The position numbers were made by a program, and so were the translations under genes. 47,085 nucleotides of DNA from Bacteroidia bacterium (GTDB lineage: Bacteria; Bacteroidota; Bacteroidia; B-17B0; Aurantibacillaceae), in the NCBI GenBank assembly GCA_025362575.1, contig JANYIQ010000240.1, forward strand, positions 1-47,085, given 5' to 3'. Position 1 is the stretch's first letter, and every line of letters starts with the position of its first letter. The notes beneath the pieces were generated by a model that saw only the letters and a program-made list of their open reading frames with translations, was not told the origin of the DNA and ran no database searches. This document shows positions 1-6,484 of the stretch, piece after piece.

Positions 1-2008
1 CTCCAACAAAAGCAGTGAGGTCCATTTCTTCTTTTACCCAACCATCCTGTAAGCCGTCATAAACCGGATCGGTTCCGCCAAAAGAACTTGGTGCGGTTTC
101 GTAACGCGCACATAGGGTTTGCCAGGTACTTCCGTTATTAGTGCTTCCGTAGATCTGAACAAAATCATAATTTTTTTCAAGTTTGAATTTTGTCCAGTAT
201 TGTAAATGCGCATAAGATGCACCGCTTAAATTCAAATTACTTAACAACGAAATGGTTTTGTTGGCGTTGTTGGCGTAGTTACCAATTGGACTGTCTGTAA
301 TACTTCCGGGAGCAGTTTTAAATTTAGTGGTTGAAACTCCCCAGCCGCCGGCGCTCCAATTGGTGGTAGCATTGCAAGGGTCGTTCAATACCGTAACAGG
401 TATTCCGTAAATTTTTGTGATGGTATCGTAATGTATGTAAAAACCATTATCAACTGCTAAAGCATATTTAATGTTTTGAGCTGAGGTTAAACCGCCACTT
501 AAAGTGTAAGAAATAGAATCGTTGATGGTTTGATTTTGCGCCATGCCGGTATAAACTTTTGGAGCGCCTGTTGTGGCTAAACCCAAACCAACAGGAGCAA
601 TTGAAACCGTAAAGTTTCCCGGAGTTAAACCCAAACGTTGAATGTTGTATTTGATATAACCGTTAGAAGAAAAGAAACGATCTTGGTCATCGCGAACCAT
701 CCCAAAATTAGTTACGTTTTTTGCAAGCGTAATGTTTTGATTAAAAGTGGTTTTACAAATGTCAGTAATACGTGATGCAACCGGCCAGAAACCGTCGCCT
801 GCAGAACCTGCTTCAGGCGTCATCGACATAATTTTAGGTTTTGATGTTTGCTCGCCGTACATCCAGTCATCGCTATCTCCATTAGTTACGTACATAACGG
901 TCTGGTCACCTGTACCATATAAAAAACGTGAGGTCTCACACATTAAAACACTCCAGTTCACAAAGGTTGCAGAATCTAAAGCAGGTGTGTAGTAACTTGG
1001 TAAATATCCCCATGGATAAATTAATAAGTTACTATAAGTATGTGCATTCAATGCTGTTTTAAACTGACGCGTATTACAAAAATTACGCATGGCTTGTGTT
1101 TCCGGTTCTGAGAATGCTGCAGTACCGCGATAGGTATCGGAACTTGGAGTCGGTGATGAGCCGGTATTATCATAGCCCCAGTTGTAACCATAATTACGAT
1201 TTAAATCAACACCCATTGTGCCGCCACCATTGTTACGGCGATTTTTGCGCCACATACCACCACCGGTAGGGTTTGTAGTATAGTTGTAAATGTATCCATC
1301 AGGATTTACGCATGGCACAAAAAACATTTCGGTATTATCTACTAAAAATTTCACATCAGGATTGGTTGCATAATTTTCGAGCATGTACCACATGTAAAAA
1401 ATCAATTGCGACATAGAGGCCGGTTCACGCGCATGATGCACGGCGCTGTATAATAATTCAGGCTCGCTTTCGTCAACGTTAGGATTGTCAGAAATTTTTA
1501 AATACCAGATGGTGCGGCCTTCAATGCTTTGTGTTGGATCGATAGCGGCTTTTGCTTTAATAATGCTTGGATATAGTATAGCCATGCTATCAATAATATT
1601 TAAAAATTCAGGATAAGTATAAAAACCACCCATACTGCCTAAGTGAAATTTACTTGGTTTTTTTACGGTAGGATAATTGCAATTAGGAAGTGAAGTTGTT
1701 TTATTGGGATTTAAAAAATCCTGTTTGGCTCGCTCTGCATAAAAAGCGGCCATGTCGTTAATTAAAACGGTATGCTTAATGTGGTTTTGTTTTAAGAGGG
1801 CCAATTCATCATCGCCAATTTCGGTAGTGATGGAATTTTCTTTGCGTTCGGCATGATCAATGGTAATTCCTAACTTTAATAAAGCTTGAGTTAAGGAAGC
1901 ATCGCCCTCAATTTTTACTTTATGATATTTTAAAACAGTTTGTTTTGAATTTTGTGCGTTCGCGAAAATTAAAAAGCAAAGGCAAATTAAAGTGTACAGT
2001 TTTTTCAT
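1..2008 (-). CDS. Secreted zinc carboxypeptidase, M14 family (C-terminus beyond the left edge)
   Basis: The frame is open from an ATG at 2008 to the left edge, 669 residues, so the C-terminus is missing. It starts with a Sec signal peptide (MKKLYTLICLCFLIFANAQ). The M14 zinc site is visible: HHAREP around residues 191-196 gives H192 and E195, the third ligand is H323 in NAHTYS, and the catalytic Glu is E399 in MTPEAGS. The substrate-binding motif DLNRN is also present. The enzyme should remove C-terminal residues from peptides outside the inner membrane. After the catalytic domain (to about 430) comes a beta-rich linker and a MAM-like or immune-inhibitor-A-like segment with motif WTKFKLEKNYDFVQIYGS. 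In this phylum such proteins usually end in a T9SS sorting domain, but that part is outside the window. The small ORFs inside it on both strands are shadows. Confidence 0.9.
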   Translation of the reverse strand, partial: MKKLYTLICLCFLIFANAQNSKQTVLKYHKVKIEGDASLTQALLKLGITIDHAERKENSITTEIGDDELALLKQNHIKHTVLINDMAAFYAERAKQDFLNPNKTTSLPNCNYPTVKKPSKFHLGSMGGFYTYPEFLNIIDSMAILYPSIIKAKAAIDPTQSIEGRTIWYLKISDNPNVDESEPELLYSAVHHAREPASMSQLIFYMWYMLENYATNPDVKFLVDNTEMFFVPCVNPDGYIYNYTTNPTGGGMWRKNRRNNGGGTMGVDLNRNYGYNWGYDNTGSSPTPSSDTYRGTAAFSEPETQAMRNFCNTRQFKTALNAHTYSNLLIYPWGYLPSYYTPALDSATFVNWSVLMCETSRFLYGTGDQTVMYVTNGDSDDWMYGEQTSKPKIMSMTPEAGSAGDGFWPVASRITDICKTTFNQNITLAKNVTNFGMVRDDQDRFFSSNGYIKYNIQRLGLTPGNFTVSIAPVGLGLATTGAPKVYTGMAQNQTINDSISYTLSGGLTSAQNIKYALAVDNGFYIHYDTITKIYGIPVTVLNDPCNATTNWSAGGWGVSTTKFKTAPGSITDSPIGNYANNANKTISLLSNLNLSGASYAHLQYWTKFKLEKNYDFVQIYGSTNNGSTWQTLCARYETAPSSFGGTDPVYDGLQDGWVKEEMDLTAFVG

Positions 2009-2130
2009 GTGTTGTTTATTTTTTTATTTATTGCCACATGCAGTTCGCTTACGGCTCGTGTCATAGGGTTGATTTCAGATAATGAAGTTAAGAAAAGGGA
2101 TTGTAAAAAGCAAGTTTTCTGAGAAGGTTA

Positions 2131-2238
2131 ACCACGGAGGCACAGAGGGCACAGATTTTCACGGAGTTTTTCAGAATTAGATTTTATAAATTCTCCGTGT
2201 ACCTCCGTGTACCTCCGTGTACTCTGTGTCTCCGTGGT
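2131..2238. repeat. Palindromic MITE-like element, copy 1
   Basis: A 108-bp element with imperfect terminal inverted repeats: the left end ACCACGGAGGCACAGAG matches the reverse complement of the right end CTCTGTGTCTCCGTGGT at 16 of 17 positions. An inner pair CACGGAG / CTCCGTG extends the potential hairpin. It carries a short tandem repetition of a TACCTCCGTG unit that copy 2 has fewer times. It lies directly upstream of a promoter and the first lipoprotein gene. No coding capacity is seen. Confidence 0.75.
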
Positions 2239-2248
2239 AAAAAATAAT

Positions 2249-2256
2249 TACCTTTA
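2249..2256 (+). promoter_or_regulatory. Bacteroidota -7 element (TACCTTTA) of the first lipoprotein
   Basis: TACCTTTA fits the TAnnTTTG -7 consensus except at the last base. The ATG is only 6 nt downstream, so transcription would begin at or next to the start codon (leaderless or nearly so). I see no convincing -33 TTTG. The same sequence stands before the second lipoprotein. Confidence 0.5.
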
Positions 2257-2262
2257 TGCGTA

Positions 2263-2763
2263 ATGTTGCAAGCTAAAAAATACCGATTTTGTTTGATTTG
2301 CCTTTCGGCATTATTTTTATTTACCACATGTAAAAAGTATCCTGAAAATAATTTGTGGTTTAAGAATCCGGCCAAAGTTTTAGCAAGAGGTGAAGGCCAT
2401 CCGTGGATCTTAGATTATTATTCTGTAAATGATCTGGATTCCACCGCTTCAGATTTTTTGAAAGTTTATAAAGAGCAAGGTATTGTTATGATTATTAAAC
2501 CAGGGAAATCCGGTGATTATATTTATAATAGTTTTGACGTATTACATGGTTATTGGGAACTAGCAAACAAGAAGAAGAATATAGATTTTAGATTTACGAT
2601 GTATAGTTTCTTTAGTAACAGCCCTTCTAATTCAAATTATTTGAATCAAAGAAATATATTTTTAGAATCAGCTTTTGAATGGAAGATAAACAAACTCACA
2701 AAAGCCCAGTTTTGGATCTCTACAAACTATAATAGTATTAAATACGAGATCCATTTTAAGTGA
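2263..2763 (+). CDS. Small lipoprotein, twin of the next gene
   Basis: This 166-residue protein starts with a lipoprotein signal peptide (MLQAKKYRFCLICLSALFLF, then TTC), with C23 the probable lipidated cysteine followed by KKYPENN. I do not recognise the mature domain. It has an early W..D...V..LDST segment and ends with a WKI..LT...W.STNYN..KYEI..K pattern that also occurs, more diverged, in the following gene, so the mature parts look like distant homologues. The first 30 residues are almost identical to those of the twin, also at DNA level, while the rest differs strongly. A surface or periplasmic lipoprotein of unknown function is all that can be said. Confidence 0.7.
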   Translation: MLQAKKYRFCLICLSALFLFTTCKKYPENNLWFKNPAKVLARGEGHPWILDYYSVNDLDSTASDFLKVYKEQGIVMIIKPGKSGDYIYNSFDVLHGYWELANKKKNIDFRFTMYSFFSNSPSNSNYLNQRNIFLESAFEWKINKLTKAQFWISTNYNSIKYEIHFK

Positions 2764-2816
2764 GAAACTTTTTTAATAGACAGAAAAGATAATGGCAACC
2801 CACTTGTTATTTTTTA

Positions 2817-2914
2817 ACCACGGAGGCACAGAGGGCACAGATTTTCACGGAGTTTTTCAGAATTAGATTTTATAAATTCTCCGTGTACCTCCGTGTTCTC
2901 TGTGTCTCCGTGGT
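2817..2914. repeat. Palindromic MITE-like element, copy 2
   Basis: A 98-bp near-identical copy of the element at 2131-2238, lacking one internal TACCTCCGTG unit. It has the same terminal inverted repeats and the same position directly upstream of a TACCTTTA promoter and a lipoprotein start. The identity with copy 1 continues without break through promoter and signal-peptide codons to about 3025. Confidence 0.75.
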
Positions 2915-2924
2915 AAAAAATAAT

Positions 2925-2932
2925 TACCTTTA
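2925..2932 (+). promoter_or_regulatory. Bacteroidota -7 element (TACCTTTA) of the second lipoprotein
   Basis: Same sequence and same 6-nt distance to the ATG as upstream of the first lipoprotein; it belongs to the duplicated 5' cassette. Confidence 0.5.
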
Positions 2933-2938
2933 TGCGTA

Positions 2939-3439
2939 ATGTTGCAAGCTAAAAAATACCGATTTTGTTTGATTTGCCTTTCGGCATTATTTTTATTTAC
3001 TACTTGTAAATATCCAGAAAACAATCGCCCTTATTTAACTACGGCTAAACATCGCTTGACACATCATAGATGGTTTTTCCATAAAGTAATAATAAATGGC
3101 ATTGATAGTACCATGAGTCATTTACATAAATTTGCCGCTACTGATGATGATCCGAGCAAAATAAATTTTAGTTTAGAAAATTTTCTTATGTCAGATGGAA
3201 CTAATATGAAAATATGGCTCCCAAATGTTGGATATGCTCTTAGTGATAATTTTCTTCTGAAAGATAAAAAGAAATCTGTAATAATAGGACCGGCTCTGAG
3301 TGGAACCTACATCCCGAAACTTTATTTTTTCATAGTAATAGGTGGTACTTGGGAGATAAAAATGTTAACTAGGAAAGATCTCATTTTAGAAATAAATTAC
3401 AATGGTTTAAATATCCGTTTCGAATTTAAGGATCATTAG
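2939..3439 (+). CDS. Small lipoprotein, twin of the preceding gene
   Basis: This protein is also 166 residues long, with the same signal peptide and lipobox cysteine (TTC, C23) and then KYPENN. The mature part differs from the twin but keeps a recognisable frame: W at the start, GIDST near residue 58, and a C-terminal GTWEIKMLT...EINYN...RFEFK pattern. This suggests one fold with fast divergence, or exchange of the mature domain behind a fixed secretion leader. Function unknown. It is followed by a third palindromic element and a convergent prolyl oligopeptidase gene. Confidence 0.7.
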   Translation: MLQAKKYRFCLICLSALFLFTTCKYPENNRPYLTTAKHRLTHHRWFFHKVIINGIDSTMSHLHKFAATDDDPSKINFSLENFLMSDGTNMKIWLPNVGYALSDNFLLKDKKKSVIIGPALSGTYIPKLYFFIVIGGTWEIKMLTRKDLILEINYNGLNIRFEFKDH

Positions 3440-3446
3440 ATTATTA

Positions 3447-3545
3447 ACCACGGAGGCACGAAGAACACTAAGGTGCACGGAGGGTTAATAAAAACCTAAC
3501 TTCAATAGACTCTGTGAAACTCTGTGACCTCAGTGCCTACGTGGT
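3447..3545. repeat. Palindromic MITE-like element, diverged copy 3
   Basis: The ends ACCACGGAGGCAC and GTGCCTACGTGGT form an imperfect terminal inverted repeat of the same family as the elements at 2131 and 2817; the interior (with ACTCTGTGAAACTCTGTGAC) has diverged. It fills the gap between two convergent genes, so its hairpin may also act as a two-way terminator. That last role is inference. Confidence 0.65.
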
Positions 3546-3553
3546 AAAAAAAT

Positions 3554-5653
3554 TTAGTAATTCATGCCAAGATTATAAAACACAAAGGCCCACATATCTC
3601 CGAATTCATCAATTTGTTTGGCGGTTGGTTTGCCTGCTCCATGCCCTGCATTTACATCAATACGAATTAAAGCAGGATTTTCGCCCTGAGCATTCTCTTG
3701 CAAAGTGGCCGCAAATTTAAAGGAGTGCGCCGGCACAACTCTGTCATCGTGATCGCCGGTTAATACCATTGTTGCAGGATATTTTATTTTTTTAATATTA
3801 TGCAGCGGCGAGTATTTTATTAAACATTCAAATTCGGCTTTGGTTTCGCTGTTACCATAATCAACACTCCATGCGCGGCCAATTGTGAATTTATGAAAAC
3901 GCAACATGTCTAAAACACCAACAGTTGGTAAAGCTACTTTAGCTATTTCAGGTTGTTCGGTCATAACGGCACCAATCAATAAACCGCCATTACTTCGTCC
4001 GTGTATGGCCATTTTATCATGCGAAGTATATTTATTTTCAACCAACCAATTACATCCGTAAATAAAATCATCGAACACGTTTTGTTTAGAACACTTTGTT
4101 CCGTCTTTGTGCCATTGCTCTCCGTACTCACCACCACCACGCATATTTATTACCGCATAAATTCCGCCGGCTTCTAAAAAGAAAGCCATGCTGCTGCTAA
4201 AACCCGGAGTAATGGAAATATTGAATCCGCCGTAACCATAAACAAAACAAGGTGTATTGCCTGTTAGAACAAGATCTTTTTTGTGCGTAATGAACATTGG
4301 GATCTTAGTGCCGTCTTTGCTATTGAAAAACACTTGTTTGGTAACATAGTCATCCGTTTTAAAATCGATCTGAGGTTTAAAGATCTGAGTACTTAAACCG
4401 GTTGCAAAATCGTAATAATAATTTTTAGCAGGACTTGTAAACTGAACTACCGAGTAGGTAAAGAACTTCAATGGTTTTTCGGCATGCAATTCGTTGAGCT
4501 TACATAATTCAGGTAAAGGAATTTCTTTTTCGAATTTACCATCCAGGCCAAATAATAGTAAATGCGAAGATACGTCGCGCAAATAATTTCCCAGAATTTT
4601 ATGATTGCTAAACGTAATGCTTTCTAAAAGATCGGCGGATTCAGGAATAACATCTCTCCAATCGGCACCGCGTGGTTTATTGATATCGATCTTGATCAAT
4701 TTATATTTTGGCGCCCCAAAATTAGTTTTCACATATAAATTAGAGCCAACATTTTCTATCACATCAAAATCGAATTGAAAGGTTTCATTGATCACAACAA
4801 ATTCGCCTGCGCCTTTAGAAAGATCTTTTACCATTAAGCGGTTTCCGCTGGTGCTCTCAGTTGTAGAGAGAATTAAAAAACGTTCGTCGTGACTAACATC
4901 GGCACTGAAATTAAAATTCGGATGGTCTTTATCTTCATAAACCAATTGATCTTTATCCTGTGTAGTTCCCACAACGTGAAAAAATACTTTGTGGTATTCG
5001 TTCTTTCCGGTAAATGTTTTTCCGCCTTTGGGTTCATCGTAACGGCTATAATAAAAGCCATTGGCTTTCCAGGCCATGCCAGAAAACTTCACCCATTTAA
5101 TTACATCGGGCAGATCAGTTTTTTTAGAAATATCCATTACGTGAATCTCTACCCAATCGCTGCCGGCTTTTGAAATTCCATATGCTAAAAATTGTCCGTT
5201 TTTAGAAATAGAAATGCCGCTCAACGAAACGGTTCCATCTGTTGAAAGTGTATTTGGGTCCAATAAAATTTCGCCTTTATCGCAGCAAGTGTCTTTTTGG
5301 GAATAGAGTACACTTTGGTTTTGCAAACCATCATTTTTATACCAGAAAAAACGATCACCTTTTTTAAAGGGAGGCGTAGCTTTACTGAAATTCCAGATCT
5401 CGGTCAATCGTTTTTTGATCTTATCCCGGTAAGGAATTTTATCTAAATAAGAATAAGTTAATTTATTCTCTTCTTCAACCCATACTTTGGTTTCGGCGCT
5501 ATTGTCATCTTCGAGCCAACGGTAAGGGTCTTCGATCTTTGTTCCAAAATAATCATCGGTTTGAACAGCTTTTTTGGTTTTAGGATAATTAAAACCGTTC
5601 TGTGCATTTAAACAAAGGCTTGCTGAAAAAAGGAGTAAAAAAAAGTTTCTCAT
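3554..5653 (-). CDS. Prolyl oligopeptidase (peptidase S9A), secreted
   Basis: I start the 699-residue protein at the ATG at 5653 because MRNFFLLLFSASLCLNAQ is a signal peptide; an upstream in-frame ATG at 5698 would place a charged stretch before it and run into the divergent gene. The N-terminal part carries the S9A signature (DDYFGTKIEDPYRWLED), followed by a seven-bladed propeller region and the alpha/beta-hydrolase domain. The catalytic triad is Ser554 in GRSNGGL, Asp at about 636-637 in GDHDDRVVP, and His671 in AGHGAG. Length matches the family (about 700). It should cleave short peptides after proline, probably in the periplasm. It is divergent from the AlkD-like gene with 33 bp between the starts. 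Confidence 0.93.
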   Translation of the reverse strand: MRNFFLLLFSASLCLNAQNGFNYPKTKKAVQTDDYFGTKIEDPYRWLEDDNSAETKVWVEEENKLTYSYLDKIPYRDKIKKRLTEIWNFSKATPPFKKGDRFFWYKNDGLQNQSVLYSQKDTCCDKGEILLDPNTLSTDGTVSLSGISISKNGQFLAYGISKAGSDWVEIHVMDISKKTDLPDVIKWVKFSGMAWKANGFYYSRYDEPKGGKTFTGKNEYHKVFFHVVGTTQDKDQLVYEDKDHPNFNFSADVSHDERFLILSTTESTSGNRLMVKDLSKGAGEFVVINETFQFDFDVIENVGSNLYVKTNFGAPKYKLIKIDINKPRGADWRDVIPESADLLESITFSNHKILGNYLRDVSSHLLLFGLDGKFEKEIPLPELCKLNELHAEKPLKFFTYSVVQFTSPAKNYYYDFATGLSTQIFKPQIDFKTDDYVTKQVFFNSKDGTKIPMFITHKKDLVLTGNTPCFVYGYGGFNISITPGFSSSMAFFLEAGGIYAVINMRGGGEYGEQWHKDGTKCSKQNVFDDFIYGCNWLVENKYTSHDKMAIHGRSNGGLLIGAVMTEQPEIAKVALPTVGVLDMLRFHKFTIGRAWSVDYGNSETKAEFECLIKYSPLHNIKKIKYPATMVLTGDHDDRVVPAHSFKFAATLQENAQGENPALIRIDVNAGHGAGKPTAKQIDEFGDMWAFVFYNLGMNY

Positions 5654-5686
5654 GTGCTGATTATTTTTAATTTTCGTTTTGTAAAG

Positions 5687-6484
5687 ATGAAGCATCACAA
5701 CAAATATATTAACCCAGTTGGATTAAAAAAAATCCTACTGGATAAAGCTATTGAAACCCGCATCACCCAAAATGCGCCTAAATTGCCACAAGAGCATATT
5801 AAAGCAATTACAGCCTACATTGGTACTAAACATAAAATGCTGGGCCTGGGTACAGAGCTTCAAAGGCAACTGGCAAAAGCAAATTACAATTTGCCATCCG
5901 ATCCACACAACGATCTGCCGGCATTTGACTTGCTTTACAAGAGGTCGAAGGTTTTTGAAATGAAAAACGCATCCCTCTTAATGGTAGATGTGAATTACAA
6001 AAAACTGGATAAGCAGCATTTATATAAGCACATGATCGGCTGGGTAGATCACGTGGATAATTGGGCGCACTCCGATTACTTATCTAAATTTTATACCCGT
6101 TTTTTGGAAGAAGAGAAACTTAAAAATGAGTTCTTAACTGTTCTCAAAAAATGGAATTCAGATAAAAATTTGTGGAAGAGGCGCCAGTCGTTGGTAGCAC
6201 TGTTTTATTATGCGCGCACTAAAAAAACGCATCCGACATTTAACACCGTTAAAAACTTGATTGAAACTTTATTGAACGATGAAGAGTATTTTGTTCAAAA
6301 AGCTGTAGGTTGGTGCTTGAGAGAAAGTTACAATGTTTACCCGGAACTCACGTATAAGTTTGCGATGAACAATTTTGATAAAATATCTTCAACGGCATTT
6401 TCAGCAGCTTGCGAAAAAATGACAGAGAAAGAAAAGAATACTTTAAAACTGAAACGAAAACTACATCGAAAAATAAAAAAATAA
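5687..6484 (+). CDS. DNA alkylation repair protein, AlkD-like HEAT-repeat family
   Basis: The 265-residue protein looks like an AlkD-family (DNA_alkylation) all-helical HEAT-repeat glycosylase. Family-typical segments are VDHVDNWAHSD, LWKRRQSLVALFYYAR and the FVQKAVGWCLRE repeat; the W, D and R residues match positions that contact DNA or alkylated bases in known AlkD proteins. The start at 5687 is chosen over the ATG at 5654 because the upstream one would sit in the divergent promoter region. A near-consensus TAATTTTC lies at 5668-5675. The C-terminus is very basic (KRKLHRKIKK). Expected role: excision of N3- or N7-alkylated bases; a non-enzymatic paralogue is possible. Confidence 0.8.
   Translation: MKHHNKYINPVGLKKILLDKAIETRITQNAPKLPQEHIKAITAYIGTKHKMLGLGTELQRQLAKANYNLPSDPHNDLPAFDLLYKRSKVFEMKNASLLMVDVNYKKLDKQHLYKHMIGWVDHVDNWAHSDYLSKFYTRFLEEEKLKNEFLTVLKKWNSDKNLWKRRQSLVALFYYARTKKTHPTFNTVKNLIETLLNDEEYFVQKAVGWCLRESYNVYPELTYKFAMNNFDKISSTAFSAACEKMTEKEKNTLKLKRKLHRKIKK

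What the first reader, a model, noticed from the sequence alone, without database searches (positions are those of the whole stretch)
2128..3025. Two lipoproteins share one promoter and signal-peptide cassette but have different mature domains
From 2128 and from 2814 the sequences are nearly the same for about 210 bp: palindromic element, -7 box, start codon, signal peptide, lipobox and YPENN. Then identity collapses, although both proteins are 166 residues and share faint C-terminal patterns. A plain old duplication should diverge evenly, so this looks like recent 5' gene conversion or exchange of mature domains behind a fixed export leader, as in antigenic or immunity repertoires.
Basis: partly seen in the sequence, partly recalled or inferred. 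Interest (0 to 1): 0.72.

Follow-up and report, generated by a model that had tools for sequence, protein, structure and literature searches.

The report
Leader-sharing mosaic pair of lipoprotein genes
Two neighbouring surface-lipoprotein genes in a Bacteroidota genome carry the same recently copied upstream region and export signal but belong to two long-separated branches of one protein family, a local gene-conversion event of a known kind that seems to have happened elsewhere in the family too.

Summary
About 208 bp (window 2128-2348 and 2814-3021) are 98% identical; the rest of the two genes is 49% identical (2dlnL 190). The shared part is a REP-like palindrome, a spacer and the whole signal peptide. 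The mature parts share 24% of residues and are not sisters (AU p = 1.4e-4): P0001 groups with congeners' PENNLWFKNP lipoproteins, P0002 with an own-genome paralogue on C229. So this is a recent recombination between two old paralogues, not selection on the leader and not an even old duplication. Both belong to a multicopy, lipocalin-like lipoprotein family (64 of 87 family genomes). The 1.4-kb pair is absent from the same site in the five congeners where it could be read. The cassette has no other copy in the genome or seven congeners, so no repertoire of silent copies is seen. Two tandem pairs in other genera (G035, G101) also have near-identical leaders and diverged mature parts; 12 of 15 adjacent pairs compared do not. 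Many relatives sit directly before a large T9SS-exported protein, as potempins do before KLIKK proteases; the window genes are orphans. Their role as surface binder or inhibitor is inferred.

The parts
2131..2238 (.). REP-like palindrome 1 (ACCACGGAGGCACAGAG...CTCTGTGTCTCCGTGGT), upstream edge of cassette copy 1
   Evidence: hairpin, z -8.1; arms recur about 20 times in the genome
2128..2348 (+). Shared 5' cassette, copy 1: palindrome, spacer, start codon, signal peptide, lipobox, YPENN
   Evidence: 98.1% identical to 2814-3021 against 48.9% outside; 2dlnL 190.5
2263..2763 (+). Lipoprotein gene 1 (P0001), 166 aa; leader 2263-2331 (lipobox Cys codon 2329-2331), mature part of the PENNLWFKNP subfamily, lipocalin-like model
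2817..2914 (.). REP-like palindrome 2, upstream edge of cassette copy 2, 10 bp shorter than palindrome 1
2814..3021 (+). Shared 5' cassette, copy 2
2939..3439 (+). Lipoprotein gene 2 (P0002), 166 aa; lipobox Cys codon 3005-3007, mature part groups with own-genome paralogue C229, lipocalin-like model
3447..3545 (.). REP-like palindrome 3 after gene 2, with different inner sequence
   Evidence: read; left arm found
1..2008 (-). Flank: zinc carboxypeptidase (Peptidase_M14), cut by the window edge; next to the prolyl oligopeptidase in congeners
   Evidence: Pfam E 9e-64; synteny
3554..5698 (-). Flank: prolyl oligopeptidase
   Evidence: Pfam S9_N E 1e-118 and S9 E 5e-59

Best explanation
The pair consists of two old paralogues of one lipocalin-like, lipid-anchored outer-membrane protein family, sitting as a lineage-specific insert between a zinc carboxypeptidase and a prolyl oligopeptidase gene. 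Recently one gene's 5' end (palindrome, spacer, start and signal peptide) was copied onto the other by local recombination, most simply gene conversion. The tract is bracketed by two stretches that were probably homologous already: the REP-like palindrome upstream and the conserved codons of the lipobox motif CKKYPEN downstream. Shown: the mosaic, its limits, its recency, the non-sister mature domains, the insertion, the family. Inferred: conversion rather than a duplication-and-capture event with the same outcome, the role of the two brackets, and the direction (the leader is slightly closer to the C171 paralogue on gene 2's side of the tree, so gene 1 may be the recipient). The likely work of the proteins is to bind a partner at the cell surface. 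Because many relatives directly precede a large T9SS-exported protein, I think the family works like potempins, as a cognate inhibitor or guard of that exported protein, and that the window genes are orphans without it. That last step is a guess by analogy (about 0.3).
For: Break in identity 98.1% to 48.9%, 2dlnL 190.5. Identical codons at identical residues: leader 20/22, mature 16/33, Fisher p 0.0013. P0001 and P0002 mature parts not sisters, AU p 1.4e-4; P0001 with congeners 100/97, with L023 99/87; P0002 with C229 93/83. Leaders elsewhere in the family diverge freely: other adjacent pairs share 21-73% of leader residues, so leader constraint is weak. Insertion: POP and M14 are separated by only 61-154 bp in five congeners where the junction could be read. 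Family: 7 members in own genome, 64 of 87 family genomes. Lipocalin-like models, top matches 5byp, 4qrl and potempin E at Z 9.4-9.9. Gene B (T9SS sorting domain) lies directly downstream of a lipoprotein in 13 of 17 B matches of the taxonomic family, by my count.
Against: One genome (98% complete, 327 contigs), so donor and recipient cannot be told by strain comparison. The left edge coincides with the palindrome's edge, which also fits duplication of a palindrome-leader unit. No B-type gene stands next to the window genes, so the function analogy rests on relatives only. B is not recognisably a protease. Foldseek E-values for the fold are modest (best 0.001-0.002), and VIA Z under 10 can reflect a common barrel.
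Confidence: 0.72

Rival explanations
1. Duplication of a palindrome-leader unit followed by capture of a foreign mature domain: a new gene is made by placing a paralogous mature part behind a freshly duplicated expression and export leader.
For: Left edge of identity is exactly the palindrome's edge. In G035 the second gene of a similar pair carries a 33-bp fragment of the 3' end of the upstream gene in front of its leader, as a duplicated upstream segment would.
Against: Needs more steps; both mature parts are full-length, family-typical proteins with their own CKKYPEN-like motif, so both probably had leaders before.
Confidence: 0.2
2. A system that shuffles mature domains behind a fixed leader for antigenic or immunity variation.
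For: Three tandem pairs in three genera with near-identical leaders (window 67/69 nt, G035 72/72, G101 56/60). Mature domains diverge strongly; the family is often next to T9SS-exported proteins.
Against: No further copies of the cassette in the genome or congeners; no promoterless copies found; 12 of 15 adjacent pairs compared do not share leaders.
Confidence: 0.05
3. Purifying selection on promoter and signal peptide alone keeps the 5' ends alike after an old duplication.
For: The FTTCKKYPEN end of the leader is conserved at protein level in several own-genome paralogues.
Against: Synonymous sites and the inside of the palindrome are also identical; the best leader outside the pair scores 20 against 65 within it; the AU test rejects sisterhood of the mature parts.
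Confidence: 0.01
4. Assembly artefact in a fragmented genome: a repeat joined two genes wrongly.
For: 327 contigs, 3.7% contamination.
Against: The copies differ by substitutions and indels; no third copy exists that could have caused a wrong join; both flanks match congeners.
Confidence: 0.02

Closest known systems
Gene conversion between tandem paralogous surface-protein genes
   Same: Sharp identity break, flanking homology, tandem old paralogues
   Different: Only the 5' cassette is homogenised and the mature domains stay far apart; no silent copies
Mycoplasma vsa/vpma loci (promoter and N-terminal coding DNA moved onto silent genes; PMC4534519)
   Same: A common promoter-plus-N-terminus joined to different mature parts
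   Different: There by site-specific inversion among silent genes without promoters; here both genes carry their own complete 5' end and no inversion site or silent gene was seen
Potempins of Tannerella forsythia (small lipoproteins directly preceding KLIKK proteases; PMC7296668)
   Same: Small lipoprotein, similar barrel (8ehc Z 9.7), relatives directly before a T9SS-exported protein
   Different: Partner B is not a recognised protease; the window genes have no partner; inhibition untested; the sequence profile does not retrieve potempins from the PDB
Bacteroides lipocalin-like proteins (4qrl, 5byp; Pfam Lipocalin_4, Calycin_like)
   Same: Fold of the models; weak profile matches
   Different: Pfam matches are far below cut-off

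Membership tests
Gene-conversion mosaic | Abrupt identity change not explained by selection | tested here: met
   2dlnL 190.5; synonymous and noncoding identity
Gene-conversion mosaic | Phylogenetic conflict between segments | tested here: met
   Mature parts not sisters, AU p 1.4e-4, while the leaders are 67/69 nt identical
Gene-conversion mosaic | Donor sequence identified | tested here: inconclusive
   Direction only hinted by the C171 leader; no close strain available
Antigenic-variation repertoire | Several silent or alternative copies of the cassette in the genome | tested here: not met
   Only the two copies found
Antigenic-variation repertoire | Switching within a population | not testable with these tools
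   One genome per species
Lipocalin-like lipoproteins of Bacteroidota | Signal peptide with lipobox Cys | tested here: met
   Invariant Cys in the family alignments
Lipocalin-like lipoproteins of Bacteroidota | Antiparallel beta barrel of the lipocalin type | tested here: met
   AlphaFold models pLDDT 77.7 and 83.3; VIA Z 9.4-9.9 to lipocalin-like proteins
Lipocalin-like lipoproteins of Bacteroidota | Pfam/NCBIfam profile above its cut-off | tested here: not met
   Only sub-threshold matches
Potempin | Directly upstream of a T9SS-exported protease gene | tested here: not met
   No such gene beside the window pair; relatives precede a T9SS protein that is not a recognised protease
Potempin | Inhibits the co-encoded protease | not testable with these tools
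   needs biochemistry

The most novel reading that the evidence does not exclude
The lipoprotein and T9SS-protein modules of this bacterial family form a polymorphic effector-guard system in which recombination at a constant junction (upstream tail or palindrome plus lipoprotein leader) repeatedly places new mature guards behind an existing leader, and the window pair is an orphan remnant of it.
Probability: 0.1. Interest if true: 0.62.

Novelty: new member of a known kind. Interest (0 to 1): 0.33.

Why it matters
It is a clean natural example of recombination that resets the upstream region and export signal of a surface protein while leaving its working part untouched, seen in up to three genera. 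It also points to an apparently unnamed operon (S74-like tail protein, lipocalin-like lipoprotein, large T9SS-exported protein) whose lipoproteins resemble potempin inhibitors in position and fold.

Tried and rejected
Selection on the signal peptide alone: rejected by synonymous and noncoding identity. Plain recent whole-gene duplication with fast mature divergence: rejected by the tree. A genome-wide leader cassette: no other copy. The window palindromes being mobilised by the REP-associated transposase on C57: that gene is flanked by a different palindrome, so I make no such claim. Phage origin: no match in phages or viral contigs. Known RNA at the palindrome: none in Rfam. Sigma-70 promoters and terminators in the stretch: no more than shuffles. 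Anti-phage defence family: none. Solved relatives of the exported protein B by sequence: none. The full M14 start in congener G004 was not covered by the match, so its junction was not counted.

Full report
Observation. Genes 2263-2763 and 2939-3439 encode two 166-residue lipoproteins. A two-breakpoint fit on the aligned pair gives a segment 2128-2348 / 2814-3021 with 98.1% identity over 208 sites, against 48.9% outside (2dlnL 190.5). It starts at the edge of a palindrome (2131-2238 and 2817-2914; hairpin z -8.1) and ends around YPENN. Up to the lipobox Cys codon the differences are three substitutions and a 10-bp indel; both leader substitutions are synonymous.

Not selection, not an even old duplication. 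Among identical residues, codons are identical in 20/22 cases in the leader and 16/33 in the mature part (Fisher p 0.0013). Noncoding DNA is just as identical. The mature parts share 29/123 residues; P0001 is closer to a congener's protein (L023, 55/124) and P0002 to own-genome C229 (48/131). In a tree of 48 mature parts, P0001 sits in a well-supported congener clade (100/97) and P0002 with C229 (93/83). Forcing the two together is rejected (p-AU 1.4e-4). The event is therefore recent and the genes are old.

Family. There are seven members in this genome, and matches in 64 of 87 genomes of the taxonomic family, often in tandem. Most share a lipobox followed by KKYPEN or a variant. AlphaFold models of both window proteins (pLDDT 77.7 and 83.3) are lipocalin-like barrels; the best VIA matches are Bacteroides lipocalin-like proteins 5byp and 4qrl and Tannerella potempin E (Z 9.4-9.9). 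Foldseek E-values are modest and Pfam gives only sub-threshold matches.

Is the cassette elsewhere? No. Own genome: only palindrome arms (20 exact matches of a 13-base core) and one 78% leader fragment in paralogue C171. Seven congeners: fragments only. The leader is closest, weakly, to C171 (score 20 against a shuffled 95% limit of 15), which hints that gene 1 was the recipient.

Recurrence. Among 15 adjacent pairs compared (window included), two more have near-identical leaders and diverged mature parts: G035 (leader 72/72 nt, mature 258/450; 113 bp at 100%, 2dlnL 117) and G101 (56/60, 218/402; 119 sites at 91%, 2dlnL 72). In G035 the shared piece includes 33 bp of the 3' end of the upstream gene, a copy of which precedes gene 2; here sister status of the mature parts is not firmly rejected (p-AU 0.077), so this case is softer. 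In the remaining 12 pairs leaders are about as diverged as mature parts, or partly alike (L108, 16/22 residues). Homogenised leaders are thus recurrent but not the rule.

Locus. The flanks are a zinc carboxypeptidase and a prolyl oligopeptidase. In five congeners these two are neighbours with only 61-154 bp between them and no lipoprotein gene. The pair and its three palindromes are a lineage-specific insert. One congener (G001) has another palindromic element at the same place.

What the family may do. In relatives the lipoprotein often stands directly before a roughly 770-820-residue protein (B) with a T9SS sorting domain, and after a protein whose tail resembles S74-type chaperone tails (by eye; no Pfam match). 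By my count, 13 of 17 B matches in the family have a lipoprotein directly upstream. In T. forsythia, KLIKK proteases are directly preceded by small lipoproteins, potempins, reported to inhibit the co-expressed protease, and the pairs are highly variable (PMC7296668). Position and fold agree; B is not a recognised protease, so this is an analogy. In this genome the B search found only truncated pieces beside C57 and C323, and the window genes have none.

Mechanism. I favour gene conversion between tandem paralogues bracketed by the palindrome and the conserved lipobox codons. Duplication of the palindrome-leader unit with capture of a mature domain gives the same picture and cannot be excluded without strains. 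The antigenic or immunity repertoire reading lacks silent copies and evidence of switching.

Noticed in passing
L028 (G000:C323), reverse complement positions 2541 and 3374: A lipoprotein relative plus a truncated B gene sits right after glmS, flanked by a 20-bp direct repeat AGTGTTACGGTAGAGTAATT, the 3' end of glmS: looks like an insertion that duplicated its target.
   Followed up: partly
L027:3685-4233 (G000:C57): REP-associated tyrosine transposase (NF047646, E 4e-31) near another lipoprotein relative, flanked by its own GGTCGGGAGC palindromes, unlike those in the window.
   Followed up: partly
L142:5508-11107 (G007:C1): Apparently unnamed operon: S74-like tail protein, lipocalin-like lipoprotein, 811-aa T9SS-exported protein without known catalytic domain, and two further small secreted proteins.
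   Followed up: partly
L047 (G001:C43), between POP and M14: A different palindromic element (CTCGCAAAGACGCAGAG...CTTTGCGAG) occupies the same intergenic site as the window insert.
   Followed up: no
L112 (G101:C207), reverse complement about 1427-1632: Truncated B gene (about 69 aa) between two lipoprotein genes with near-identical leaders, a likely remnant of a module array.
   Followed up: no
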